Notes under the pieces: model-generated | What the model saw: the letters and a program-made list of their open reading frames with translations, nothing else | Told to the model about the DNA's origin: nothing | Databases searched by the model: none | Part shown: positions 8,125 through 57,776 of the stretch, piece by piece | How positions within the stretch are numbered: the first letter of the stretch is position 1 | Layout: the number at the start of each line of letters is the position of its first letter | Position numbers and translations under genes: made by a program | Assembly (NCBI RefSeq): GCF_001687335.1 | Contig: NZ_MAGO01000003.1 | Location: forward strand, 1 to 64,000 | Direction of reading: 5' to 3' | DNA length: 64,000 nucleotides | Origin: Dissulfuribacter thermophilus | GTDB taxonomy: Bacteria; Desulfobacterota; Dissulfuribacteria; Dissulfuribacterales; Dissulfuribacteraceae

Positions 8125-8301
8125 CAAATTATGCAGCTCGAAAGCCTTGCAGAATATGCAAGGCTGAGGGTATGCAAAGGACTTAGGTACTTCAAGTCCC
8201 CGACAAAGCAAGGCCATTCAGTAAAGTTGCGAGCCCATTGGGGCTTCAAATCCCTGAAATTTAATCGCCGTATCAAGCAGCACCTTTTGGGTAAAGGGAC
8301 A
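8125..8301 (+). repeat. Partial, decayed copy of the ~255-bp dispersed element (subfamily 2)
   Basis: The left part (AATTATGCAGCTCGAAAGCC, ACTTAGGTACTTCAAG, GGGCTTCAAATCCCTGA) matches the full copy at 25871-26125 read in reverse complement. Homology fades after the CACCTTTTGGGTAAAGG segment and the right terminal repeat is missing. It lies between the convergent ABC ATPase and bamD genes. Confidence 0.7.
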
Positions 8302-8309
8302 AGACCGAT

Positions 8310-14022: not shown

Positions 14023-14289
14023 TTCCACCTAAATCCTGCAATTGTCGAGTTTGCCCAAGATGCAAGGCGGACCGGAAGCAGACGCACTCAGGCACTTCAC
14101 GCCCCTGACAACGCAGAAACCCGGGTAAAATCGCCAATCCCGCAGGGCAGCCAAATGGGGCAAAAACTTGAAGAACTTGCATTTCACTAAAAAAGTGAAT
14201 CTAAGTAAATACTTTTCATAAAGTAACACCTTAATATAATATTGGAAATGCATTTTTGCCCCCTTTTGCCGTGCAGGATTTAGGTTCCA
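14023..14289 (+). mobile_element. Dispersed element copy A with 5-bp target duplication (element 14028-14284)
   Basis: The 257-bp non-coding element is bounded by perfect 13-bp inverted repeats CCTAAATCCTGCA (14028-14040) and its complement (14272-14284). It is flanked by the direct repeat TTCCA at 14023-14027 and 14285-14289, which indicates insertion. The two internal arms are partly decayed here. It separates gyrA and gpsA, ending 21 nt before the gpsA start, so gpsA must be transcribed through or from it. Confidence 0.88.
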
Positions 14290-14344: not shown

Positions 14345-16789
14345 TTAATCCTCTGCAAGTCGTGCCACTGCTGCCAGTCTGTCATTATTCTCTAGCTTGA
14401 TTAAACGCACACCCTGTGTGGCCCTGCCAGTAGGCCTGACATCTTGGACCCGTAACCTTATAATCTGACCACTCCTTGCAACAAGCATTACCTCATCATG
14501 ATTTTTTACATGCATTATAGCCACTACTTTGCCAGTCTTTTCTGTAATCTTTAAATTAATTATTCCCTTTCCGCCTCTAGACTGAACTCTGTACTCTGCA
14601 ATCTCAGTACGTTTCCCATAACCTCCTTCAGATACGGTCAATAAGGTTCCTTCATCTCCATTAACCACCACCATACCAACTACTTCATCATCTCCTTCCA
14701 GCCTAATGCCTCTGACTCCTGCTGCAATTCTACCCATAGGTCTGACGTCCGATTCATGAAATCTGATACTCATTCCATTTTTTGTCCCTAAAAGGACATG
14801 CGAATCACCGCTTGTAATCTCAGCTGCAATCAGTTCATCTCCTTCATTTACATTTGCAGCTATTATTCCAGAGGGTCTAGGTCTGGAAAAGGCCTCAAGA
14901 CTAGTCTTTTTAATGATACCATTCTTTGTGGCCATAACCACAAAACTGTCTTTATGAAACTCTCGGACAGGAATTACTGCTGTTATGCGCTCATCTTCCT
15001 TACTTTCCAAGGGGAGTAGATTCACCAATGCCTTACCCCTGCTCGCTCTCGATGCCTGAGGTATTTCGTGAACCCTGAGCCAATAGAGCCTTCCTCTATT
15101 ACTAAAGCACAGGAAATAGTCATGGGTTGAGGCCACAAAAAGTCTTTCTATGAAGTCCTCATACTTTGTAGAGAGACCTGTCACCCCTTTTCCACCCCTT
15201 TTCTGACTCCTATATAGACTAAGGGGGTTTCTCTTGATATATCCCTTATGAGACAGGGTGACCACCATGTCTTCTTCTACTATGAGATCCTCAATACTGA
15301 AATCCTTGACCTCGTCTATGATATTTGTACGCCTTGGATCTGCGTATTCGTTTTTAATCTCAATTAATTCTTTTTCTATTATCTCCATTACCCGACTTTC
15401 GTTAGCGAGTATATCTTTATACTCAGCAATGGCCTTGAGGATCTCTTCATATTCTTGAATTATTTTGTCCCGTTCCAACCCAGTTAAACGTTGGAGTCTC
15501 ATATCCAAGATGGCCTGGGCCTGGATAGCAGTAAGCTTAAAACGCTCAATCAGTCCAGTCTTGGCCTCTTGGGGAGTCTTGGAGGAACGAATCAATGCCA
15601 CACACTCATCAAGATTTTCAATGGCAATCTTAAGACCTTCAAGGATATGCGCCCTTTCTTCTGCCTTCTTGAGATCATATGTGGTGCGCCTTATTACAAT
15701 GGTCTTTCTGTGCTCGAGAAAGTGGGCCAATAATTCTTTTAGATTCAAAAGCTCAGGTCTACCATTTACTATGGCCAAGAGGATGATTCCAAAAGAGCTC
15801 TCCATCAAGGTGTGCTTGTAAAGGTGATTCAATACAACCTCTGCAACACCATCCTTCTTGAGCTCAATAACTATTCTTATGCCATCTCGGTCTGACTCAT
15901 CTCTTACCTCGTGAATCCCCTCGATCTTTTTCTGCTGACTCAAAAGAACTATTTTCTCAATCAGTTTTGCCTTATTAACCTGATATGGGATCTCTGATAT
16001 CACAATAAATTCACGGCCTTTTGCAGGCCTCTCTACTGATGCGCGAGCCCTGATTTTTATAATTCCCTTTCCTGTCTCATATGCCGATTTTATGCCAGAT
16101 CGACCACAAATAAAGCCTGCAGTGGGGAAATCAGGCCCTGGAATATACTTCATTAACTGAGCAACACTTATGTTTGGATCGTGAATCATGGCCACAAGGG
16201 CATCTACTACCTCTCCCAGATTGTGAGGAGGTATATTTGTTGCCATGCCAACTGCAATACCGGCAGCGCCATTAATAAGGAGATTTGGTATCCTTGAGGG
16301 GAGTACTACTGGTTCTTTGAGGGAGTTATCATAATTGGGTACAAAATCCACTGTCTCCTTTTCAATATCTGCCATAAGTTCATGGGCAAGCTTTTTTAAC
16401 CTCACCTCTGTGTACCTCATGGCAGCAGGAGCATCACCATCTATAGAACCAAAATTTCCCTGGCCATCCACAAGGGGATACCTCATGGCAAAATCTTGAG
16501 CCATTCTCACTATGGTATCATATACGGCTGCGTCACCGTGTGGATGATATTTACCTATTACGTCACCCACTATTCTCGCCGATTTTTTATATGGTTTGTT
16601 ATAGTCATTTCTCAGTTCGTGCATTGCATAGAGGATGCGTCTATGCACTGGTTTTAAACCATCTCTAACATCCGGGAGGGCACGGCCGATAATTACGCTC
16701 ATTGCGTAATCCAGGTATGACTTCTTGAGTTCAGCGGCAATGTCACAAGTGTCAGCGCGTTCTTTAAACAACTCTTCTTGTTCAGACAT
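14345..16789 (-). CDS. gyrA: DNA gyrase subunit A
   Basis: This type II topoisomerase subunit breaks and reseals DNA to introduce negative supercoils. The catalytic tyrosine is Tyr126 in AAMRYTE. The quinolone-determining region reads [19 protein letters not shown] (residues 80-98). The C-terminal wrapping domain begins after the GyrA box QKRGGKG, which distinguishes gyrase from ParC, and shows six blade-like repeats. The length of 814 residues is normal. Residue 87, aligned with E. coli Ser83, is alanine. It starts 16 nt after nikR, so the two may be co-transcribed. Confidence 0.97.
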
Positions 16790-21881: not shown

Positions 21882-22138
21882 CCTAAATCCTGCAATTGAC
21901 GAGTTTGCCCTTTGATATCGAGGAGCGAGGGGCGAAGACGTACTTAGGTACTTCGAGCCCCGAGCAACAAAGAAGATTGGGCAAAATCGCCAATCCCGAA
22001 GGGCGGCAAAAGGGAGCAAAAAATATGGAATATGGATTCACCCCAAAAGTGAATTTGAGGAAAAACCAAATATTGGCTAATCCCTTATATAATCGTTTAC
22101 AATCCATTTTTGCCCCCTTTTGCCGTGCAGGATTTTGG
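21882..22138 (+). mobile_element. Dispersed element copy B inside the pil operon
   Basis: This 257-bp element has left terminus CCTAAATCCTGCA (21882-21894) and right terminus TGCAGGATTTTGG (22126-22138), with one mismatch. The internal arms and the TTCACCCC...GTGAAT hairpin are retained. Flanking 5-mers (AAGCA and GACGA) do not match, so no target duplication is left. It lies between pilN and pilO, 28 nt after the pilN stop, in an operon that is usually contiguous. Confidence 0.85.
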
Positions 22139-25870: not shown

Positions 25871-26125
25871 CCCGGATTATGCACTTCAAATGCCTGAAGA
25901 AAGTAATTTCTATGAATTATTGCATAGTTAGCATGCATCTTTTCCCGTTGTGCCTTCACCCAAAAGGTGAAGTTCAATCCGTAATAAATCCTCAGGCATT
26001 TGAAGCCGCAAGGGGCTCGCAATCTTACCGAGGTCTCTTTGTTGTCGGGCACTTGAAGTACCAAAGTACGTCTGCGTGCCCTCCGCCTCGCATCTTCGGC
26101 AAACTTGCGAGCTGCATAATCCGGG
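25871..26125 (-). mobile_element. Dispersed element copy E, subfamily 2, between lepA and lepB
   Basis: This 255-bp non-coding element has perfect 13-bp inverted repeats CCCGGATTATGCA (25871-25883) and its complement (26113-26125). It aligns with the other subfamily only when reverse-complemented. Internal arms pair perfectly or nearly so: 25884-25897 with 25992-26005 (14/14), and 26015-26032 with 26094-26112. A CTTCACC/GGTGAAG hairpin caps one arm (25954-25972). Flanks TTTAT and TTGAT match at 4 of 5 bases. Confidence 0.85.
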
Positions 26126-33257: not shown

Positions 33258-34745
33258 CTAATTTATATTCTCGATTGATTCCAAGCGCTCAATGACCTTA
33301 TCTTTTCCAATTGCCACCATACAATCAAAAATGCCTGGTCCTTTGAGTTGCCCAGTTATCAATGTCCTGATTCCATTGATAATTATACCCGGTTTCACTC
33401 CTTTGGACTCACAAAAATCCCTAACTACCTCTTCAGTACTCTCCAGGGTCCACTGTTCCAGAGTTTTCAGTTTTTGGGCGAGTTCAGGAAGTAGTTCCTT
33501 AAGTTCAGGGTGTTTTACAATGTTCTTTTTCCAGGCCTTTTCATCTATCTCAAATTCATCGGAAAAATATGCTCGGCCAGCTCCAACAAAGTCCTTTAAT
33601 GTATGAAACCTTGACCTGATGAGATCAATAGTTCCAAGGAACCACTCTCTCCGATCGCCTGCATATGATTCATCCCAGAGCCCTTCGTTTCTCAATTCCC
33701 TCTCTACATATTCAGCAAGTTCCTCCACGGGGATTGTCCTTAAATAATGAGCATTTATGGAAAGGGCCTTGGGATCAGTAAAAAACTTCTTCTGTTTCTC
33801 CTTATCCTCAGGATTAAAGTTGAATACGGAGTTAGCCTTGCTTATGCCCTCTAATGAAAATGCCTCGATTAATTCTTCCCTAGAAAAAATCTCTCTGTTA
33901 TCAGGGGTATGCCATCCAAGTAACACCAAAAAATTTACCAGTGCCCAAGGCAGAAACCCCTTTTCTCTATAAAATTGAACGCTGACTACCTCTCCGTGGG
34001 TACGCTTCGAGATCTTTCTCTTCTTTGGATCCAAGGTAAGGGGCATATGAGCAAAGACTGGAGGCTGTTTTCCAAGGGCCTCATAAATAAGAATTTGACG
34101 AATAGTATTGGCCATATGGTCTTGGCCACGAATTATATGCGTAATCCCGTCCCTGATATCGTCAACAACATTACAAAGCAAATATAGAGGCCTACCATTG
34201 GATCGTACAATGACAAAATCCTCAATTTCAGAGTAATCCTTTTCAATCCGACCCAGGACCTGATCATCATAGCCTATACGACCACTACGCTTCGGGACCT
34301 TAAAGCGAATAACATAAGGGAGCCCCATGGCCTCCTTTTCTCTTATTTCCGCCTCTGTTAGATTCCGACACGTCCCGTCATAACCGATACTTCTCTTTTC
34401 CTGTAATGCCTGTTTCCTCTTTCTTTCTAACTCCTCTTTAGTACAAAAGCACTTATAGGCCTTCCCTTCATTCAGGAGTCTTTTAGCGGTCTCGATGTGC
34501 TCTTCCTGAAAATCGCTTTGGAAATATGGCCCCTCATCCCAGTCTAATCCAAGCCACTTGAGTCCATCGAGGATTCCTTCCACAGACTCTTTTGTCGAAC
34601 GCTCAACATCGGTATCCTCTATCCTCAAAATGAACTTTCCATTGTGTTTCTTTGCGTATAGCCAATTAAAAATAGCGGTTCTAGCCCCACCAATGTGTAA
34701 ATAGCCTGTGGGACTCGGCGGAAATCTTACAATTACTTCAGACAT
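33258..34745 (-). CDS. gltX: Glutamyl-tRNA synthetase
   Basis: GltX charges tRNA-Glu with glutamate. The class I signatures are PPSPTGYLHIGGARTAIFNW (HIGH region) and KISKRTHG (KMSKS region). A zinc motif CFC...Y-x3-C lies near residues 98-126. The anticodon-binding helical domain follows. At 495 residues the size is standard. It lies downstream of glnS on the same strand, separated by dispersed element copy C. Confidence 0.96.
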   Translation of the reverse strand: MSEVIVRFPPSPTGYLHIGGARTAIFNWLYAKKHNGKFILRIEDTDVERSTKESVEGILDGLKWLGLDWDEGPYFQSDFQEEHIETAKRLLNEGKAYKCFCTKEELERKRKQALQEKRSIGYDGTCRNLTEAEIREKEAMGLPYVIRFKVPKRSGRIGYDDQVLGRIEKDYSEIEDFVIVRSNGRPLYLLCNVVDDIRDGITHIIRGQDHMANTIRQILIYEALGKQPPVFAHMPLTLDPKKRKISKRTHGEVVSVQFYREKGFLPWALVNFLVLLGWHTPDNREIFSREELIEAFSLEGISKANSVFNFNPEDKEKQKKFFTDPKALSINAHYLRTIPVEELAEYVERELRNEGLWDESYAGDRREWFLGTIDLIRSRFHTLKDFVGAGRAYFSDEFEIDEKAWKKNIVKHPELKELLPELAQKLKTLEQWTLESTEEVVRDFCESKGVKPGIIINGIRTLITGQLKGPGIFDCMVAIGKDKVIERLESIENIN

Positions 34746-34770
34746 CTCTTAACATCCTCTCCTTTTCATC

Positions 34771-35034
34771 AACTACCTAAATCCTGCAATTGGCGAGTTT
34801 GCCCAAGATACGAGGAGCGAGGGGCGAAGACGTACTTAGGTACTTCGAGCCCCGAGCGACAAAGTAGATTGGGCAAAATCGCCAATCCCAAAGGGCGGCA
34901 AAAGGGAGCAAAAACACAAAATATAGATTCACCCAAAAAGTGAATTTCGTGAAAAGCCAGATGTTAGCTAATACTCTATAAAATCGTAAATAATTCATTT
35001 TTGCCCCCTTTTGCCGTGCAGGATTTAGGAACTA
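34771..35034 (+). mobile_element. Dispersed element copy C with 5-bp target duplication (element 34776-35029)
   Basis: This is the best-preserved copy, 254 bp. Terminal repeats 34776-34788 and 35017-35029 are perfect (13 bp). Flanks AACTA at 34771-34775 and 35030-35034 are a perfect 5-bp duplication. Arm 1 pairs 34789-34806 with 34869-34886 (17 of 18). Arm 2 pairs 34897-34914 with 34998-35015 (17 of 18) and is capped by an ATTCAC/GTGAAT hairpin. It lies between glnS and gltX and overlaps the glnS 3' end. Confidence 0.92.
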
Positions 35035-36713
35035 TTTTTTCGGCGCCTTAACTTTTCCCATGTATCCTTTAGCGTCACAATTCTATTAAATACCAATTGA
35101 TCTTGCCGTGAATCTTTCGAGTCAAGGCAGAAATATCCCTGACGTTCAAACTGATAACGTTCGCCAACTTTGGCATTGGCAAGCCCTGGCTCAAGCTTAC
35201 AGCCTTTTAAAACCACCAGTGATTCAGGATTTAAGAACTCTGTAAAGTGTGGCCCACCTTTCCCCCTGTCTGGATTTGGATCTTTAAACAGCCTGTCATA
35301 TAGCCTTACTTCTGCGTCAACAGCATGGGCCTGGGAGACCCAGTGGAGCGTTGCCTTTACCTTTCTGCCATCTGGGGCATTACCACCTTTAGTCTCTGGG
35401 TCATAAATACATCTCAGCTCTACAACCTTACCTGATGAATCTTTGATGACGTCAACACACTTTATAAAATATGCATATCTAAGTCTAACTTCCCTACCTG
35501 GAGCAAGCCTATAAAATTTCTTGGGTGGATCTTCCATAAAATCTGTCTCTTCGATGTAGATAACCTTAGAAAATGGCACTAGCCTGGTGCCCTGATCAGG
35601 GTCTTCTGGATTGTTTATACATTCAAGTTCTTCTGTCTTTCCATCTGGATAATTTTCAATAACCACCTTTAGTGGTCTTAGGACTCCCATTACCCTAGGT
35701 GCAGTCTTGTTAAGTTCCTCTCTAATGCAGTGTTCGAGAAGGGCTATGTCAACGACACTATCCCTTTTGGCCACCCCTATCCTCTTACAAAATTCTCTGA
35801 TGGCAGATGGGGGAATGCCTCTTCTCCTGAGTCCTGAAATCGTGGGCATCCTTGGATCATCCCAGCCATCCACAAAGCCTTTCTCCACGAGCTCCTTGAG
35901 CTTTCTTTTACTCATTACTGTGTAGCTTAGATTTAATCTCGCAAACTCAATCTGTTGAGGATGGCAAGGGACCTCGAGTTCATCCAGTATCCAATCATAA
36001 AGGGGTCTATGGTCCTCAAATTCCAGAGTACATATTGAGTGAGTTATTCCCTCTATTGAATCTGAAAGGCAATGGGCAAAATCATAAGTAGGATAAATAC
36101 ACCACTTGTCACCTGTCCTGTGATGTGGGACGTGCAGTATTCTATAAAGTACTGGATCCCTCATGTTGATATTTCCTGAGGCCATATCGATCTTGGCCCT
36201 AAGCACCCTTTCTCCTTCCTTAAATTCGCCTTTTCTCATCCTTTCAAAGAGATCTAAATTCTCTTCTACACTCCTGTTTCTATATGGACTTTCTTTTCCT
36301 GGTTCAGTGAGGGTGCCTCTATATTGTCTGATCTCCTCTGGACTAAGATCACATACATATGCTTTTCCACGTTTTATGAGTTCTACTGCATATTCATAGA
36401 GTCTTTCAAAATAGTCAGATGCAAAATAAAGATGCTCTCCCCAATCATAGCCGAGCCAGCGCACATCTTCTTTTATTGATTCAACAAATTCCTCTTCCTC
36501 TTTAGTAGGATTTGTATCATCAAATCTTAGGTGGCACCTACCGCCAAATTCCTCGGCTAGGCCAAAGTTGAGCACGATACTCTTGGCATGGCCAATATGT
36601 AAATAACCATTTGGCTCAGGAGGAAATCTTGTAATGACTGTCTTGTGTTTACCAGTTGAGAGATCATGCTCAATTATATCTTTTATAAAATTAGGTGGCA
36701 CCTTATCTTTCAT
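35025..36713 (-). CDS. glnS: Glutaminyl-tRNA synthetase
   Basis: GlnS charges tRNA-Gln directly with glutamine. The class I motifs are [16 protein letters not shown] and VMSKRKL. Two beta-barrel anticodon-binding domains follow ([19 protein letters not shown]-type block [20 protein letters not shown]). At 562 residues it is the usual bacterial size. The last sense codon and the TAA stop are supplied by the terminal repeat of element copy C, so the native C-terminus has been altered by a residue or more. Presence beside gltX means Gln-tRNA need not be made by amidation. Confidence 0.96.
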
Positions 36714-42396: not shown

Positions 42397-42867
42397 TTAG
42401 CTACTCAATATTTGAACCAGCCTCTCCCTATATTCCTCATGGACTGATGGTGTAAAAGCCAGACCTGCCTCATACCAACCGTCTAAAAAACTTGGCTTTG
42501 TCCACCTGACGCATGCAGTTATATCCATTAATGGCCTTCTATTTTCACCATATAGCCAGAAGTCATAGCATTCCCCCTGTTTCAATGGTTCTGCTAGCAT
42601 AATCCGCATTCCACCAAGACTCATGTCAATTGTAAAACTATTTGGCTGATCTGGTGCCGTCTGCGTTGCACAGGGTATAATTTTCCTTATCCTGTTATAC
42701 TTTCTCCTATCATCTTCTTTTTCTCTGCCAGAATTTTCATACTGCTTATACCTTACACATTCTGAATATCTGCCCAGACAATAAAAATCTTTGTGGATAG
42801 TTAGTGGGATATACATACCGCTATCCGGGATTAGACAAATGTCATCTGCAAAAAATGGGCAATCCAT
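42397..42867 (-). CDS. PilZ-domain protein with a cysteine-rich N-terminus
   Basis: This 156-residue protein has a C-terminal PilZ domain with the c-di-GMP motifs RRKYNRI (RxxxR, about residues 74-80) and DMSLGGMRI (D/NxSxxG). It probably senses c-di-GMP. The N-terminal ~40 residues hold four cysteines (CPFFADDIC ... CLGRYSEC) spaced like a metal or iron-sulfur site. It follows uvrB convergently. A link to the pilus system is possible but not shown. Confidence 0.85.
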   Translation of the reverse strand: MDCPFFADDICLIPDSGMYIPLTIHKDFYCLGRYSECVRYKQYENSGREKEDDRRKYNRIRKIIPCATQTAPDQPNSFTIDMSLGGMRIMLAEPLKQGECYDFWLYGENRRPLMDITACVRWTKPSFLDGWYEAGLAFTPSVHEEYRERLVQILSS

Positions 42868-43623
42868 AATCTTTCCCTCTAATAAAATCTACAATTAAAG
42901 ATATAAAGACCATGCATAAGTTAGTTTATCCTTTTATTTAAAGCTAAAACCGTGCCAAACTATGTTATTATCGACCAATAAAACTGCTGCAGGTTCTCCC
43001 CATAATAGCAGTACCTAGGTGATCCTTTTGGCACGAATGCTTTATAACAATTTTCGCATACCAAACCCTCCATGAAGATTTAGCACTCTATTTCATGTGC
43101 CCCCTATTCTACGGTCCTCACCCACCAGTACTTCGAAGTCACCCATAGAATCAAAAAGTGCTTGAGTATTTTCCCTTATTCGCTGGACATTTGAGTCGAA
43201 GACCTTAATATTTTTTTTGTTGGACGCTGCTCTAAAGCCTCTGACCTCATTACTATCTCCAAAAAGACGACTGACAATTTATCGAACTTTTAAAATTTGT
43301 CCAGTAATATATTAAATCTTAAATGTCTTAGCTTTGCAACACCTATAGGCAGTTAATTCTAATATTAACTACCATGAAACATAACTAGCATTTTTCTATT
43401 AAATTTATCTATATTTTCAATACAAACAAAATAAAAGCGGACTGCAATAAAGTTTAGAAGGATACTTTCATAAATACCATTAATTTATTTTTTATGTAGT
43501 TTGAGATATGTCCTCACCAATTATTAGATCACAAAGAAGGCACTAAAGAAAATTGAAAAGGAATTGAGATAGTGAATTCAAAGATTTTGTTTGTGAGCAT
43601 GCAGGCAAGACAGGTAAAAAAAA
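42868..43623. other. Long intergenic region (756 bp)
   Basis: No intact gene is seen. On the minus strand 43278-43093 is an open stretch of about 61 codons without a start (listed separately). The rest is AT-rich, with a small GTTAAT/ATTAAC hairpin near 43350. Its length is unusual for this gene-dense window. Confidence 0.5.
43093..43278 (-). pseudogene. Possible gene remnant
   Basis: The minus-strand frame reads about 61 codons without a stop and has protein-like composition (NKKNIKVFDSNVQRIRENTQ, then ALFDSMGDFEVLVGEDRRI). It lacks ATG, GTG or TTG at its beginning, where an in-frame TAA stands. It may be the 3' end of a decayed gene. The family is not recognised. Confidence 0.3.
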
Positions 43624-43721
43624 TGGCGGAAGCGCATGGGAATCGAACCCACCCACGAGGCTCCTCACCCCGTGCACCGGATTTGAAGTCCGGGAGGGCC
43701 ACCAGCGCCCTTTCCGCTTCC
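43624..43721 (-). tRNA. selC: Selenocysteine tRNA (anticodon TCA)
   Basis: This 98-nt tRNA-like gene on the minus strand has loop CTTCAAA (anticodon TCA reading UGA), a long variable arm and the extended structure of tRNA-Sec. Acceptor arms GGAAGCG and CGCTTCC pair, and GCCA is encoded at the 3' end. It implies that the organism recodes UGA with SelA, SelB and SelD, which are not in this window. A run of eight T follows the CCA. Confidence 0.95.
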
Positions 43722-46208: not shown

Positions 46209-46580
46209 CTAATCATCGTCGTCCCAGTCCTCTGGAAGGTCTTGAGACTTTTGGGTCTGTGGCTTGGGCTCTGTCTTTATTTCTGCCTGTTTTTTCGCAT
46301 TATTAAGGCTTTTTTCACGTTCTTCCTTACTCCACTGTTCTGTCTTTTTCTTCAGCCGATTACTCAATAAAAGCAGGTTTTTTATACCTCCTGCCAATCC
46401 AAATAGAAAAAAGATTATAGTAAACCATGGATGGGTTCTTCCCTCAAAGACGTCCGTATCCAGCCAGTAACCGAACCAGACCCCGGCAAAGGTTGAAAAG
46501 ACCATGGCAGCACCCATGGTGGAAGCATGGGCTAGAATACGAAAGATCTCATTTAGGTATTTCTTAGTCTCAGGTCTCAT
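46209..46580 (-). CDS. atpZ: AtpZ/AtpI-type ATP synthase accessory protein, copy 1
   Basis: This 123-residue protein has two hydrophobic helices (GAAMVFSTFAGVWFGYWLD and PWFTIIFFLFGLAGGI), matching the F0F1-ATPase AtpZ/gene-1 family that assists Fo assembly or magnesium/calcium handling. The polar C-terminal tail of about 45 residues ends in DLPEDWDDDD. It lies downstream of atpE copy 1 beyond a terminator. A second copy at 48904-49164 has lost this tail. Confidence 0.87.
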   Translation of the reverse strand: MRPETKKYLNEIFRILAHASTMGAAMVFSTFAGVWFGYWLDTDVFEGRTHPWFTIIFFLFGLAGGIKNLLLLSNRLKKKTEQWSKEEREKSLNNAKKQAEIKTEPKPQTQKSQDLPEDWDDDD

Positions 46581-46666
46581 AAATCAGCATGAAGGGAACC
46601 CCGGTCCCGATCCTCGAGTGTTTACTACATCTCTGTCGGCTAGGGCCCCTCTCAAAAAAACAAAAA

Positions 46667-46691
46667 AGCGGTGAAAGTTACTTTCACCGCT
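46667..46691 (-). terminator. Intrinsic terminator after atpE copy 1
   Basis: AGCGGTGAAAG (46667-46677) pairs perfectly with 46681-46691 across a 3-nt loop. On the minus strand it is followed by TTTTTTGTTTTTTT. It sits between atpE and atpZ copy 1 and so may limit atpZ expression. Confidence 0.85.
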
Positions 46692-46750
46692 ATACTTCAT
46701 TGGGGTCCCCTCTGGGAATTCTGTCTGACCTGTGTCGTAAATCTCTTCCC

Positions 46751-47852
<1,102 letters not shown>

Positions 47853-48392
47853 AGTTACAGGGCCTCCTTAAAGATTATGTATAGTGGTTCATTGCATTGA
47901 TCAAAAAGGAGCGGCAAGATAACCCCTCTAATATCCTCCCCTTTTTGAAGTACTCCCAATCTATCGAAAACGATTGAATGAATCGCCATTCAGCGCAACA
48001 GTCAAAAAAATTTCTTTTCAAATCAACCTATTGCACTGAATATTGCCTCATTCATACATCAAAATATAGGGAGCTAGCAACAAATACGCTCCCTACTTGA
48101 ACATACGTTATTAGCACAAACCCCATGGGGTGTCAATAGCAAAAGACCACTCAAAAACCCAGCAGTTTGAGTATTAATTCACTCAGTTTTCTGTTTCAAT
48201 TCCAATATAACCATCATCTAGGACATAAACATCGTCAGCCATGAATTTATACCAGAAGGGACCACTCTACCCATGGATAGCCAGACCTTCGGCTGCGGCC
48301 ATTAGTCTAATGGAAGAGGGAAAATCTCTAGCATTTTCCCAGACAATTCGTCATTTTAACCCCAAATAGTGTATCGTGATTAAGATGTCAGC
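47853..48392. other. 540-bp gap between atpI and atpB
   Basis: No gene is seen. The stretch contains a weak hairpin (AGGGAGC 48068-48074 with 48088-48094) that could end the atpI transcript. It presumably also holds the atpB promoter. Such a gap inside an atpI-atpB unit is unusual. Confidence 0.4.
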
Positions 48393-48788
48393 CTAGTTTG
48401 GGTTTTTCTTCCTTACAAGCTTCATCTGGATCACCAGCAGAAAAAAGGTAATTGGAACTACTGAGACACCAACAAATATCCCTACCAAACTGAATTTACC
48501 AGGGAATTTCAGAACAAAGGTACCGATTACTATAATGGCAAGGAGCAGCCTGGTAAACATTCCTATAAAGTATACTATCTGGGAACGCCATTTTACGATG
48601 CGTTTCGTGTCTCTCAAGACGCCGACAGCATTCAAAGCGGCAACCACTCCACCAAGGGCAATTCCCCTTACACCTTCAGGGGTCCACCAGACATTGGCCC
48701 CTGCAAGCAACGCTACCAGGATAAACCAGATTCCGATTAAAAACCGCTTTGCAAGGCCTTCATCGAGCTCGCCTATCCACATCAACAT
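48393..48788 (-). CDS. atpI: ATP synthase subunit I-like protein
   Basis: This 131-residue membrane protein has four hydrophobic segments (FLIGIWFILVALLAGANVWW; GIALGGVVAALNAVGVL; FIGMFTRLLLAIIVIGTFVL; GVSVVPITFFLLVIQM), the AtpI (ATP_synt_I) pattern. It is a non-essential assembly helper for the c-ring. GAGGA precedes the start, and this ribosome-binding region overlaps the decayed tail of atpZ copy 2. Confidence 0.82.
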   Translation of the reverse strand: MLMWIGELDEGLAKRFLIGIWFILVALLAGANVWWTPEGVRGIALGGVVAALNAVGVLRDTKRIVKWRSQIVYFIGMFTRLLLAIIVIGTFVLKFPGKFSLVGIFVGVSVVPITFFLLVIQMKLVRKKNPN

Positions 48789-48796
48789 GGCCCAAT

Positions 48797-48903
48797 CCTC
48801 AACATCCCAGTCCTTTGGAAGATCTCGGAGTCTCCGATGCTCCTACATAGGCTCTTTTCTCTTCTCTCCCAACTCATCTTCATGGTTAAGGCTATTTTCA
48901 TAG
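48797..48903 (-). pseudogene. Decayed 3' tail of atpZ copy 2
   Basis: Beyond the atpZ copy 2 stop the DNA still aligns with the tail coding region of copy 1. Examples are AGATCTTCCAAAGGACTGGG against AGACCTTCCAGAGGACTGGG, and the GCCTTAA-x2-ATG segment. Stops and indels break the frame. It shows that the duplicate once carried the full acidic tail. Confidence 0.7.
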
Positions 48904-49164
48904 CTATTCCCTGCTCCATTGTTCCAGCTTTCTCTTGTTCCGATCATTCAACAAAAACAGGTTCCTTATACCTCCTGCAAGTCCGAATAGGAAGAAGACT
49001 ATAGTAAACCATGGATGGGTCCTCCCATCAAAGACGTCTCTGTCCAGCCAGTAACCGAACCAGACCCCGGCAAAGGTTGAGAATACCATGGCTACGCCCA
49101 TAGTAGATGCGTGGGATAGGCTACGCAGGATTTCGTTGAGGTGTTTCTTGGTCTCAGGTCTCAT
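48904..49164 (-). CDS. AtpZ-type ATP synthase accessory protein, copy 2 (tail-less)
   Basis: This 86-residue protein is about 80% identical over its length to copy 1 and keeps both membrane helices (GVAMVFSTFAGVWFGYWLD; PWFTIVFFLFGLAGGI). It ends at EQWSRE, where copy 1 continues for about 35 residues. Premature termination followed the duplication. It may still be functional because the membrane core is intact. Confidence 0.83.
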   Translation of the reverse strand: MRPETKKHLNEILRSLSHASTMGVAMVFSTFAGVWFGYWLDRDVFDGRTHPWFTIVFFLFGLAGGIRNLFLLNDRNKRKLEQWSRE

Positions 49165-49290
49165 AATTCAACATGATGGGGCCCCAGTCCTTGTCCTGAG
49201 GAGGTGTTTTTACTGCTCAGTGGGCTGGAGCCATTTCCCTGAATCAAAAAATTCGGTAGATCTGCCTACCATTGCCGTAAGTCTCGTCCC

Positions 49291-49653
<363 letters not shown>

Positions 49654-51553: not shown

Positions 51554-51627
51554 CCCAGATTATGCAGCTCGAAAGCCTTGCCGAAGATGCAAGGCGGAGG
51601 ATACACAGACGTACTTAGGTACTTCAA
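51554..51627 (+). repeat. Truncated copy of the dispersed element (subfamily 2, left end only)
   Basis: The left terminus CCCAGATTATGCA (51554-51566) and the next ~60 bp (GCTCGAAAGCCTTGCCGAAG, GACGTACTTAGGTACTTCAA) match copy E in reverse complement. Homology stops at about 51627, 13 nt before the stop of the polyferredoxin gene. Confidence 0.75.
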
Positions 51628-51640
51628 CTGATCAAGCCCC

Positions 51641-52642
51641 CTAAAAAGATGGATGTCCAAATGAGTTCATCATTGAATAGAACTTCTTAAACATCAATGG
51701 AGAAACCACAGTATCCCAAAGCCCTGTAAGCTTAGCAACGACCCAAAAGGCAAGAAATAGGCCTACAATGCCTATGGGCAACAGAAATGGATTCATGCTT
51801 CTACCCATAAAAGAAGGGGTCAAACAGCCCTTTTTAGGACAACTAGCCACACATTCTTCACATCCGATGCAGTCTGGATCGAAAATTTCTAGTTTCTCAG
51901 ATACTGCAATGCCCGATGGACATGCCTCTTTACACCTCTTACAGTTTATACAACTTTCTGGATCACGTTTTATACGAGTTGGACTCAAAATGGAAATTAT
52001 CCCTAAAAAGGCACCATAAGGGCACAAATATCTACACCAAATATTTGCTACAAACAAAGAGGCAATTGCCAAGAATGTGATCACATAAATAGTAGTAGAC
52101 GAAGGGTGCAAGAAAAACTTTAACATCTTTGCATCAACTGCGACATTATAGGGACTCTGGATAAATGCATCCACAGACTTTAAATCCATTTTAAAAAATA
52201 TTACATATAGGAAAAAGGCTAGAAGCACATATTTAGGAAGCCCCAAAATGACACCAATCCCTCTCTTTATAGGGATCCTTACTTTTAAAAAGCGGCCTAT
52301 TTTCTCCACAATACTCGACAAAAAGCCAACTGGACAGATCCACCCGCAAAATCCCTTTCTAAAAACAAATGCTATCGCTATGGCCGCTATTAAAATAGTT
52401 AGCCCAGCTGGATGAATCATATCGTATTGCCCCGTTTGAATAAGCCTCCTTAGGCCAAGTAGGGCACTTATTGGGAGAAAGGCCTCTACAGACGGGGGCC
52501 TGGGAACAAATTGTTCACTGTTTCCAATGGCCCATTCATAGAAGCAAAAAAACCTATAACCAATGTAAAGACAAAAAAGTGCAAACGATCCCTGTACAGC
52601 GATTCTTACTAACTTTATGACCTTATAGTTCTTCAGATCCAT
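51641..52642 (-). CDS. Membrane 4Fe-4S polyferredoxin (NapH/CcoG-like)
   Basis: This 333-residue protein has five or so transmembrane helices, two membrane-side CxxxCP motifs (CGWICPVGF and CRYLCPYGA) and two ferredoxin-type clusters (CINCKRCKEACP and CIGCEECVASCPKKGC). This layout occurs in NapH, NosR-C-terminal and YccM proteins that pass electrons from quinol to periplasmic or cytoplasmic partners. ATG at 52642 is chosen over a TTG at 52666. The electron acceptor is not indicated by neighbours. Confidence 0.88.
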   Translation of the reverse strand: MDLKNYKVIKLVRIAVQGSFALFCLYIGYRFFCFYEWAIGNSEQFVPRPPSVEAFLPISALLGLRRLIQTGQYDMIHPAGLTILIAAIAIAFVFRKGFCGWICPVGFLSSIVEKIGRFLKVRIPIKRGIGVILGLPKYVLLAFFLYVIFFKMDLKSVDAFIQSPYNVAVDAKMLKFFLHPSSTTIYVITFLAIASLFVANIWCRYLCPYGAFLGIISILSPTRIKRDPESCINCKRCKEACPSGIAVSEKLEIFDPDCIGCEECVASCPKKGCLTPSFMGRSMNPFLLPIGIVGLFLAFWVVAKLTGLWDTVVSPLMFKKFYSMMNSFGHPSF

Positions 52643-52775: not shown

Positions 52776-53028
52776 CCTAAATTATGCAATTGGCGATTTT
52801 GCCCAAGATGTGAGGCGCGAGGAGTGAAGGCATACTTAGGTATTCCGAACCCCGAGCAACAAAGTAGATTGGGTAAAAGCGCCAATCCCGAAGGGCGCCA
52901 AAAGGGGACAAAAAATAGAGATTGGGATTCACCGAAAAAGTGAATTTGGCGATGTGGTTGATATTGGCTGACAAGCTATAAAATCTTGAAAAATCATTTT
53001 TGTCCTCTTTTGCCGTGCAGGATTTAGG
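52776..53028 (+). mobile_element. Dispersed element copy D
   Basis: This 253-bp copy has left terminus CCTAAATTATGCA (two changes from the other copies) at 52776-52788 and intact right terminus at 53016-53028. Internal arms and the TTCACC/GTGAAT hairpin are present. No flanking duplication (GCTAA and GGAAA). It lies between divergent genes and touches the ribosome-binding site of the plus-strand gene. Confidence 0.85.
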
Positions 53029-57283: not shown

Positions 57284-57595
57284 CCCGGGTGTCACCTCCT
57301 AATGATTTCAGGATGGCCACACCCCATACCCACACAGGGCTTAACACTGAGCTCCAGAACGGACCAGGTGGAAATAAAAGTGGCAAATTTTATTTGAAGG
57401 AAAACAATTTAGGTTTGTCTAAATCTTACATCCCACATTGTCTTTTTGAGGTCTGATATATTCAACTACTCCATTTGCCAAAATTCATTTAATGAAAAAC
57501 ACAAAACAAAGTCATATATGGCAACTGGCTAAAATCCTTTTATTTCCAACCCAGTACCGCAATATATATGAACCCAGATGGGGTTATAGCCAAAA

Positions 57596-57776
57596 TACCC
57601 CCGCTTGTGCCGTGTCTACAGGGTTCATTGAACCTGACCTAGTCAGGTGGGCGTCTCATCCGCAAGGCGTCAGACAGGGATGTTTTCCCCGTCATCGGCT
57701 CGCGAAGCGGAGACCCCCTTGTACGGGGTGTTGGCTCAACGAACTTCCTGTTTGATCACGGTCACAGCAGGGGAAG
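57596..57776 (-). ncRNA. ssrS: 6S RNA
   Basis: On the minus strand this ~180-nt sequence folds into a long rod. The closing stem pairs CCCCTGCTGTGACCGTG (57757-57773) with CACGGCACAAGCGGGG (57599 to about 57614). An interior region holds GTTCGTTGAGCC opposite GGTTCAATGAACC, and an apical stem-rich part follows. The 6S RNA binds the sigma70 RNA-polymerase holoenzyme. Its place directly downstream of zapA is the classic ssrS location. Confidence 0.82.

What the first reader, a model, noticed from the sequence alone, without database searches (positions are those of the whole stretch)
14023..14289. A family of ~255-bp non-coding mobile elements with 13-bp terminal repeats and 5-bp target duplications
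Full copies occur at 14028-14284, 21882-22138, 34776-35029, 52776-53028 and (subfamily 2) 25871-26125, all 253-257 bp. Two copies have perfect terminal repeats CCTAAATCCTGCA and perfect 5-bp flanking duplications (TTCCA at 14023/14285; AACTA at 34771/35030). No transposase lies in any copy, so this looks like a MITE family mobilised in trans, at a density of about one per 10 kb. I do not recognise it as a described family.
Basis: seen in the sequence. Interest (0 to 1): 0.8.

Follow-up and report, generated by a model that had tools for sequence, protein, structure and literature searches.

The report
Transposase-less IS1380-type mobile elements (MITEs)
The genome of a deep-sea sulfur bacterium (very probably Dissulfuribacter thermophilus) carries about 80 places with a ~255-base jumping DNA element that has no gene of its own, bears the ends and target-site marks of the IS1380 transposon family, and keeps an unusually well preserved branched fold.

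Summary
Five full copies (253-257 bp) lie at the stated coordinates; two have perfect 13-bp inverted ends and perfect 5-bp target duplications. Over all loci fetched, 51 of 81 end pairs are flanked by exact 5-bp repeats and none by 4, 6 or 7. A relative has a clean empty site at lepA-lepB. None of 37 full copies sampled in this genome interrupts a gene (70% of control positions do). IS1380 elements of relatives have the same 13-bp ends (CCCAAATTATGCA, CCCGGATTATGCA), and this genome holds an IS1380 fossil. For CCTAAATCCTGCA-ended copies the link is indirect (hybrid-ended copies, shared body, likeness to ISEcp1); no autonomous IS with exactly those ends was found. New: both subfamilies are collinear, nearly constant in length, and share a branched fold supported by strong covariation; its 5' hairpin occurs in 41 of 297 genomes of the phylum, in some without these ends. 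What keeps the fold (transposition, RNA function, or arm-to-arm conversion) is open.

The parts
14023..14289 (+). Full subfamily-1 copy 14028-14284 with perfect ends 14028-14040/14272-14284 and TSD TTCCA (14023-14027, 14285-14289); between gpsA and a gene at 14345-16789
21882..22138 (+). Full subfamily-1 copy between pilN and pilO; one mismatch in right end, no TSD; no element at this junction in 29 relatives
25871..26125 (-). Full subfamily-2 copy, ends CCCGGATTATGCA, in minus orientation between lepA (EF4) and signal peptidase I; TSD TTTAT/TTGAT; empty site in G002
34771..35034 (+). Full subfamily-1 copy 34776-35029 with TSD AACTA, between two tRNA synthetase genes; its right end supplies the TAA stop of the gene at 35025-36713
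52776..53028 (+). Full copy with hybrid ends (CCTAAATTATGCA left, CCTAAATCCTGCA right), no TSD
8125..8302 (+). Partial, decayed subfamily-2 copy
51554..51655 (+). Partial subfamily-2 copy (end CCCAGATTATGCA plus part of the 5' hairpin)
14041..14138 (+). Conserved 5' hairpin (P2) of the 14028 copy
   Evidence: model R1
21895..21994 (+). Conserved 5' hairpin (P2) of the 21882 copy
   Evidence: model R1
26015..26112 (-). Conserved 5' hairpin (P2) of the 25871 copy
   Evidence: model R1
34789..34886 (+). Conserved 5' hairpin (P2) of the 34776 copy
   Evidence: model R1
52789..52886 (+). Conserved 5' hairpin (P2) of the 52776 copy
   Evidence: model R1

Best explanation
A family of non-autonomous transposons (MITEs) of the IS1380 type. 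Each copy is a ~255-bp non-coding cassette whose 13-bp ends (CCTAAATCCTGCA, CCCAAATTATGCA or CCCGGATTATGCA) are IS1380-type ends. An IS1380-family transposase supplied in trans acts on these ends and inserts the cassette into AT-rich, intergenic 5-bp targets (WTNAW), which are duplicated. In this genome (very probably Dissulfuribacter thermophilus S69) only a fossil transposase fragment was found, so the copies are probably stranded now, or depend on a transposase lost from or missing in the draft. The inside is a conserved branched hairpin structure, not a shortened transposase gene. SHOWN: dispersal, TSDs, an empty site, no coding content, conserved pairing, IS1380 elements with the same 13-bp ends in relatives. 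INFERRED: mobilisation by that transposase, its action on the CCTAAATCCTGCA ends, and any role of the fold.
For: 45 matching segments and 109 end matches in the genome, 83 core-bearing places. 51 of 81 end pairs with exact 5-bp TSD, none with 4, 6 or 7; 27 of 37 full copies in this genome. Clean empty site at lepA-lepB in G002 and no element at pilN-pilO in 29 relatives. 0 of 37 copies in a long open frame against 248 of 356 control positions. IS1380 transposase in G029 passes the NCBIfam IS1380 cut-off (195.9 vs 180 bits) and lies beside CCCAAATTATGCA. In G017 a 1672-bp decayed IS1380 element with both ends lies ~1.1 kb from a subfamily-2 MITE with TSD TTCAT. IS 5' tip matches the MITE hairpin-side tip in 11 of 13 end bases and 8 of the next 9. 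IS1380 fossil in this genome. ISEcp1 right end reads CCTAAATTCCACGT inward, and a 5-bp duplication TCATA is reported for it (PMC7864471).
Against: No intact IS1380 transposase in this genome. No autonomous IS with exactly CCTAAATCCTGCA ends found in 47 genomes. Some copies lack TSDs (21882, 52776). No transposition was observed.
Confidence: 0.87

Rival explanations
1. The element is chiefly a multicopy structured RNA, or a DNA hairpin bound by a host protein, that happens to spread by transposition; the branched fold is kept by selection for a cellular function such as mRNA stabilisation, termination or nucleoid binding.
For: Strong covariation, near-constant length, the 5' hairpin recurring in 41 of 297 genomes of the phylum, in some without these ends.
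Against: No Rfam family; no promoter- or terminator-like site in the copy scanned; G-T cells exceed A-C cells only 112 to 70; sites are not conserved between relatives.
Confidence: 0.2
2. The pairing is kept without selection: arms of the palindrome are homogenised by template switching or arm-to-arm conversion, so covariation is a by-product of a MITE's inverted-repeat form.
For: Watson-Crick pairs dominate and G-T excess is small, as expected for DNA-level copying; long stems are typical of MITEs (general knowledge; PMC11578231 for a folded MITE).
Against: Apical loop and bulge motifs of the 5' hairpin, which pairing does not explain, are also conserved; length is kept as well.
Confidence: 0.35
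3. The CCTAAATCCTGCA-ended copies are moved by a transposase of a different family, and only the CCCAAATTATGCA and CCCGGATTATGCA copies by IS1380.
For: No IS with exactly CCTAAATCCTGCA ends found.
Against: Hybrid-ended copies with one end of each type and an exact TSD (L006, L023), the same body, same TSD length and target type, and resemblance to ISEcp1 ends.
Confidence: 0.1
4. The copies are old fixed repeats (REP- or ERIC-like) at orthologous sites, not mobile elements.
For: Copies in the genome are mostly 70-96% identical, so many are old.
Against: Exact 5-bp TSDs at most full copies; absence from the orthologous pilN-pilO and lepA-lepB sites in relatives.
Confidence: 0.02

Closest known systems
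IS1380 family insertion sequences (ISEcp1; the IS1380 elements of the relatives)
   Same: Ends beginning CC with the same or similar 13 bp, 5-bp target duplications
   Different: The elements here have no transposase gene, are ~255 bp instead of ~1.7 kb (G017 element), and carry an unrelated branched hairpin inside
Chunjie MITE of Geobacter uraniireducens (178-235 bp, inserted in an operon; described in review PMC10969869)
   Same: Size class, intergenic or in-operon location, TIRs and DRs, many partial copies, host in the former Deltaproteobacteria
   Different: End sequence and IS family could not be compared: the original paper is not held
MITEPye1 of Paracoccus yeei, IS1182-type (PMC11578231)
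   Same: Non-autonomous, IS-like ends, direct repeats, RNA-level stem-loop, intergenic
   Different: Different IS family, 1-3 copies per chromosome, and no covariation analysis in the passages read
Multicopy nucleotide sequences of Geobacter metallireducens and G. bemidjiensis (PMC2700814, PMC2996986)
   Same: Abundant intergenic repeats, some palindromic, in related bacteria; one class 'similar to multicopy sequences in many other genomes'
   Different: Their sequences are in supplements that could not be read; described there as putative regulator-binding sites or RNAs, not as IS1380 MITEs

Membership tests
MITE (non-autonomous DNA transposon) | Terminal inverted repeats | tested here: met
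   13-bp ends, perfect in three of five window copies
MITE (non-autonomous DNA transposon) | Target-site duplication of fixed length | tested here: met
   51 of 81 end pairs exact at 5 bp, 0 at 4, 6 or 7
MITE (non-autonomous DNA transposon) | Short, no transposase gene | tested here: met
   253-257 bp; ORFs of 120 aa or more only touch the borders
MITE (non-autonomous DNA transposon) | Many dispersed copies and empty sites in relatives | tested here: met
MITE (non-autonomous DNA transposon) | Movement in trans by an IS transposase | not testable with these tools
   needs a transposition assay
IS1380-derived element | Ends shared with an IS1380 element, CCCAAATTATGCA/CCCGGATTATGCA types | tested here: met
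   13 of 13 identity with IS1380 ends in G009, G011, G017, G019, G029
IS1380-derived element | Ends shared with an IS1380 element, CCTAAATCCTGCA type | tested here: inconclusive
   10 of 13 identity with IS1380 ends, hybrid copies exist; no exact IS found
IS1380-derived element | Target duplication of the length made by IS1380 elements (5 bp reported for ISEcp1) | tested here: met
   5 bp; TCATA for ISEcp1 (PMC7864471)
IS1380-derived element | IS1380 transposase in the same genome | tested here: inconclusive
   only a fossil at C9:118607-118877; draft assembly has gaps
Described RNA family (Rfam) | Match at or above gathering score | tested here: not met
Chunjie MITE | End sequence and IS family | not tested
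   original paper not held

The most novel reading that the evidence does not exclude
The inside of the element is a selected nucleic-acid structure: a ~100-nt hairpin with conserved apical motifs, found across the phylum in several mobile settings, that was captured by IS1380 ends and spread as a fixed-length branched cassette because the structure itself helps transposition (hairpin folding, transposase or host-factor binding) or acts as an RNA in the transcripts it lands in.
Probability: 0.3. Interest if true: 0.65.

Novelty: new variant of a known kind. Interest (0 to 1): 0.45.

Why it matters
No IS1380-type MITE family turned up in the papers searched, and this one runs through an order of bacteria that includes sulfur disproportionators (subfamily-2 query: 30 of 47 genomes). 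It enters operons such as pilN-pilO without breaking genes, gives a natural record of IS1380 end specificity (three end types and hybrids), and offers a test of whether MITE interiors can be selected structures: the fold is kept across strongly diverged copies with dozens of covarying pairs. ISEcp1, known for mobilising resistance genes, belongs to the same IS family, so end and target preferences may be comparable.

Tried and rejected
The first alignment of the five copies as given misaligned the 25871 copy because it lies in the opposite orientation; corrected. PF13701 search of this genome found nothing; a relative's transposase as query found the fossil. A blind search for inverted repeats around IS1380 genes recovered a matching end pair of this type only for the G017 element. 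L063 (G025) has TGCAGGTTTTAGG near an IS1380 gene but in the wrong orientation for an end of that IS; rejected. The 42825-42925 end pair in the window is probably chance (2 mismatches in each end, no TSD). RNA-strand test by G-T against A-C cells, 112 to 70, judged inconclusive. Promoter and terminator scan of one copy found nothing. Weak Rfam matches (a microRNA and Xist, far below gathering) taken as chance. Literature search for strings of the hairpin motif gave no relevant paper. Chunjie paper not held.

Full report
OBSERVATION. Two have perfect 13-bp ends and perfect 5-bp duplications. A search of the genome (27 contigs, 2,524,199 bp; the window is C3:1-64000) with the first copy gives 45 matching segments, and the 13-mer end occurs 109 times at up to one mismatch against 2 for the reversed control. 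A covariance model of the 5' hairpin finds 92 matches; nine are the same place on the other strand, leaving 83 places, about one per 30 kb, so the window is richer than average. Some end pairs enclose only ~60-150 bp, as shortened derivatives would.

ORGANISM. The published draft of Dissulfuribacter thermophilus S69 has 27 contigs and 2,524,218 bp (PMC5276818); this genome has 27 contigs and 2,524,199 bp. The identification is an inference from that match; the same right end occurs in two uncultured Deltaproteobacteria MAGs.

MOBILITY. In all loci fetched by then, 81 end pairs 40-340 bp apart were found; 51 have an exact 5-bp direct repeat at the borders and none has one of 4, 6 or 7 bp; the duplicated targets follow WTNAW. 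Some of the 81 are overlapping or spurious pairings, so the true fraction is probably higher. In this genome 27 of 37 sampled full-length copies have the exact duplication, and none of the 37 interrupts a long open frame once the element is removed in silico, against 248 of 356 control positions. Between pilN and pilO the spacer is 331 bp here; in 29 relatives the genes overlap or have shorter spacers (up to 188 bp) that do not show this element. Between lepA and lepB the spacer is 315 bp here and 43 bp in G002 of the same family; removing the element and one duplication copy restores a run TCCTTGATTTCC that is continuous in G002, apart from a 10-bp indel beside it.

MOBILISER. No copy encodes a protein, and the genome has no PF13701 match. 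Relatives carry IS1380-family transposases, most of them broken. The best, in G029, is cut by a contig end but otherwise open, and NCBIfam names it IS1380 family transposase above the cut-off. The ends next to these genes are CCCAAATTATGCA or CCCGGATTATGCA, letter for letter the ends of subfamily 2 and of a set of subfamily-1-bodied copies in this genome (L013, L018, L022, L024). In G017 a 1672-bp decayed IS with both ends lies about 1.1 kb from a subfamily-2 MITE flanked by TTCAT. The 5' tip of that IS matches the MITE's hairpin-side tip in 11 of the 13 end bases and 8 of the next 9; the other tip matches less well. This genome keeps a fossil of an IS1380 transposase at C9:118607-118877 (47-57% identity, interrupted) with a degenerate end TCCAAATTATGTA about 200 bp downstream. 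The CCTAAATCCTGCA end is linked by hybrid copies with one end of each type (52776 in the window; L006 and L023 elsewhere, the latter two with exact TSDs), by the shared body, and by likeness to the ISEcp1 right end (CCTAAATTCCACGT read inward; PMC7864471). An IS with exactly that end was not found, so for that end type the assignment is inference.

ANATOMY. Read from the hairpin side, both subfamilies have one plan: a 13-bp terminal stem; a ~98-nt 5' hairpin with conserved motifs (AAGATGCGAGG, GACGTACTTNGGTACTTC, GACAACAAAGCAGATT); usually a small CCC-GGG hairpin; and an 18-bp 3' stem closing a loop with a further small hairpin. Lengths cluster at 250-259 bp (55 of 81), and most subfamily-2 copies are exactly 255. 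On 39 copies this fold pairs 92.1% of cells (81.1% when 3' letters are shuffled, at most 44.5% when slid), with 339 both-side changes (131 shuffled) and a covariation score of 0.345 (0.161 shuffled, at most 0.097 slid); no shuffle of 500 reaches these. The shuffles do not remove relatedness, but the slid versions keep it and fall far below; the structure was derived from the same sequences, which favours it somewhat. Folding energies of three copies also exceed their shuffles (z -12.0, -3.3, -8.7). Pairing is therefore kept; what keeps it is not decided. G-T cells outnumber A-C cells 112 to 70, a weak hint of RNA-level selection on this strand that I do not rely on.

REACH. The subfamily-1 query matches 16 of 41 genomes searched (this one and 40 relatives); the subfamily-2 query matches 30 of 47. 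The 5' hairpin model matches 41 of 297 genomes drawn from the phylum. In G054, of another family of the phylum, it sits in a 257-bp element with ends CCTAAACGTTGCA and a 4-bp flanking match, the same plan with other ends; in G236 and G318 it lies inside a ~122-bp palindrome (AGGCTGCTCAAAAAGC...) with no duplication seen.

MECHANISM. Most likely an IS1380 transposase acts on the 13-bp ends in trans and moves the cassette into AT-rich 5-bp targets. The absence from genes can reflect both target preference and selection. In the 34776 copy the right end supplies the TAA stop codon of the neighbouring synthetase gene (open frame ends at 35025, inside the end 35017-35029), so insertion there changed only the last codons.

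KNOWN OR NEW. MITEs and IS1380 elements are known. I found no IS1380-type MITE in the papers searched, and ISfinder was not available, so novelty of the family is provisional. The nearest described elements, Chunjie and the Geobacter multicopy sequences, could not be compared by sequence. The unusual part is the branched, covarying, length-constant interior; that interior, rather than the MITE label, is what would reward a follow-up.

Noticed in passing
window 35017-35034: The right end of the 34776 copy provides the TAA stop codon of the tRNA synthetase gene at 35025-36713; several other copies in the genome also sit within a few codons of the end of an open frame.
   Followed up: partly
L225 and L229, around 1490-1625: In other families of the phylum the same hairpin motifs occur in a ~122-bp palindrome (AGGCTGCTCAAAAAGC...GCTTTTTGAGCAGCCT) present in many copies, without IS-like ends or a target duplication: a possible separate REP-like family.
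   Followed up: partly
window 46209-49567: A segment of an ATP synthase F0 gene cluster is duplicated: 300 bp at 96% (46728-47027 and 49268-49567, over an ATP synthase subunit C gene) and 279 bp at 81% (46323-46601 and 48907-49185).
   Followed up: partly
window 33258-36713: Two class I E/Q-type tRNA synthetase genes lie side by side, separated only by the 34776 MITE copy.
   Followed up: no
window 43628-43721 and 57594-57776: Selenocysteine tRNA and 6S RNA genes, both on the minus strand.
   Followed up: no
L015:1-257 (G000 contig C21): This contig begins exactly at the first base of a full MITE copy, so assembly breaks fall on these repeats and an IS could be hidden in a gap.
   Followed up: no
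G000 C1:26641-26724, C3:113754-113814, C9:135460-135529, C15:34040-34122: Very short end pairs (about 60-85 bp) with exact CCTAAATCCTGCA at both sides: deletion derivatives or a second, tiny MITE type.
   Followed up: no
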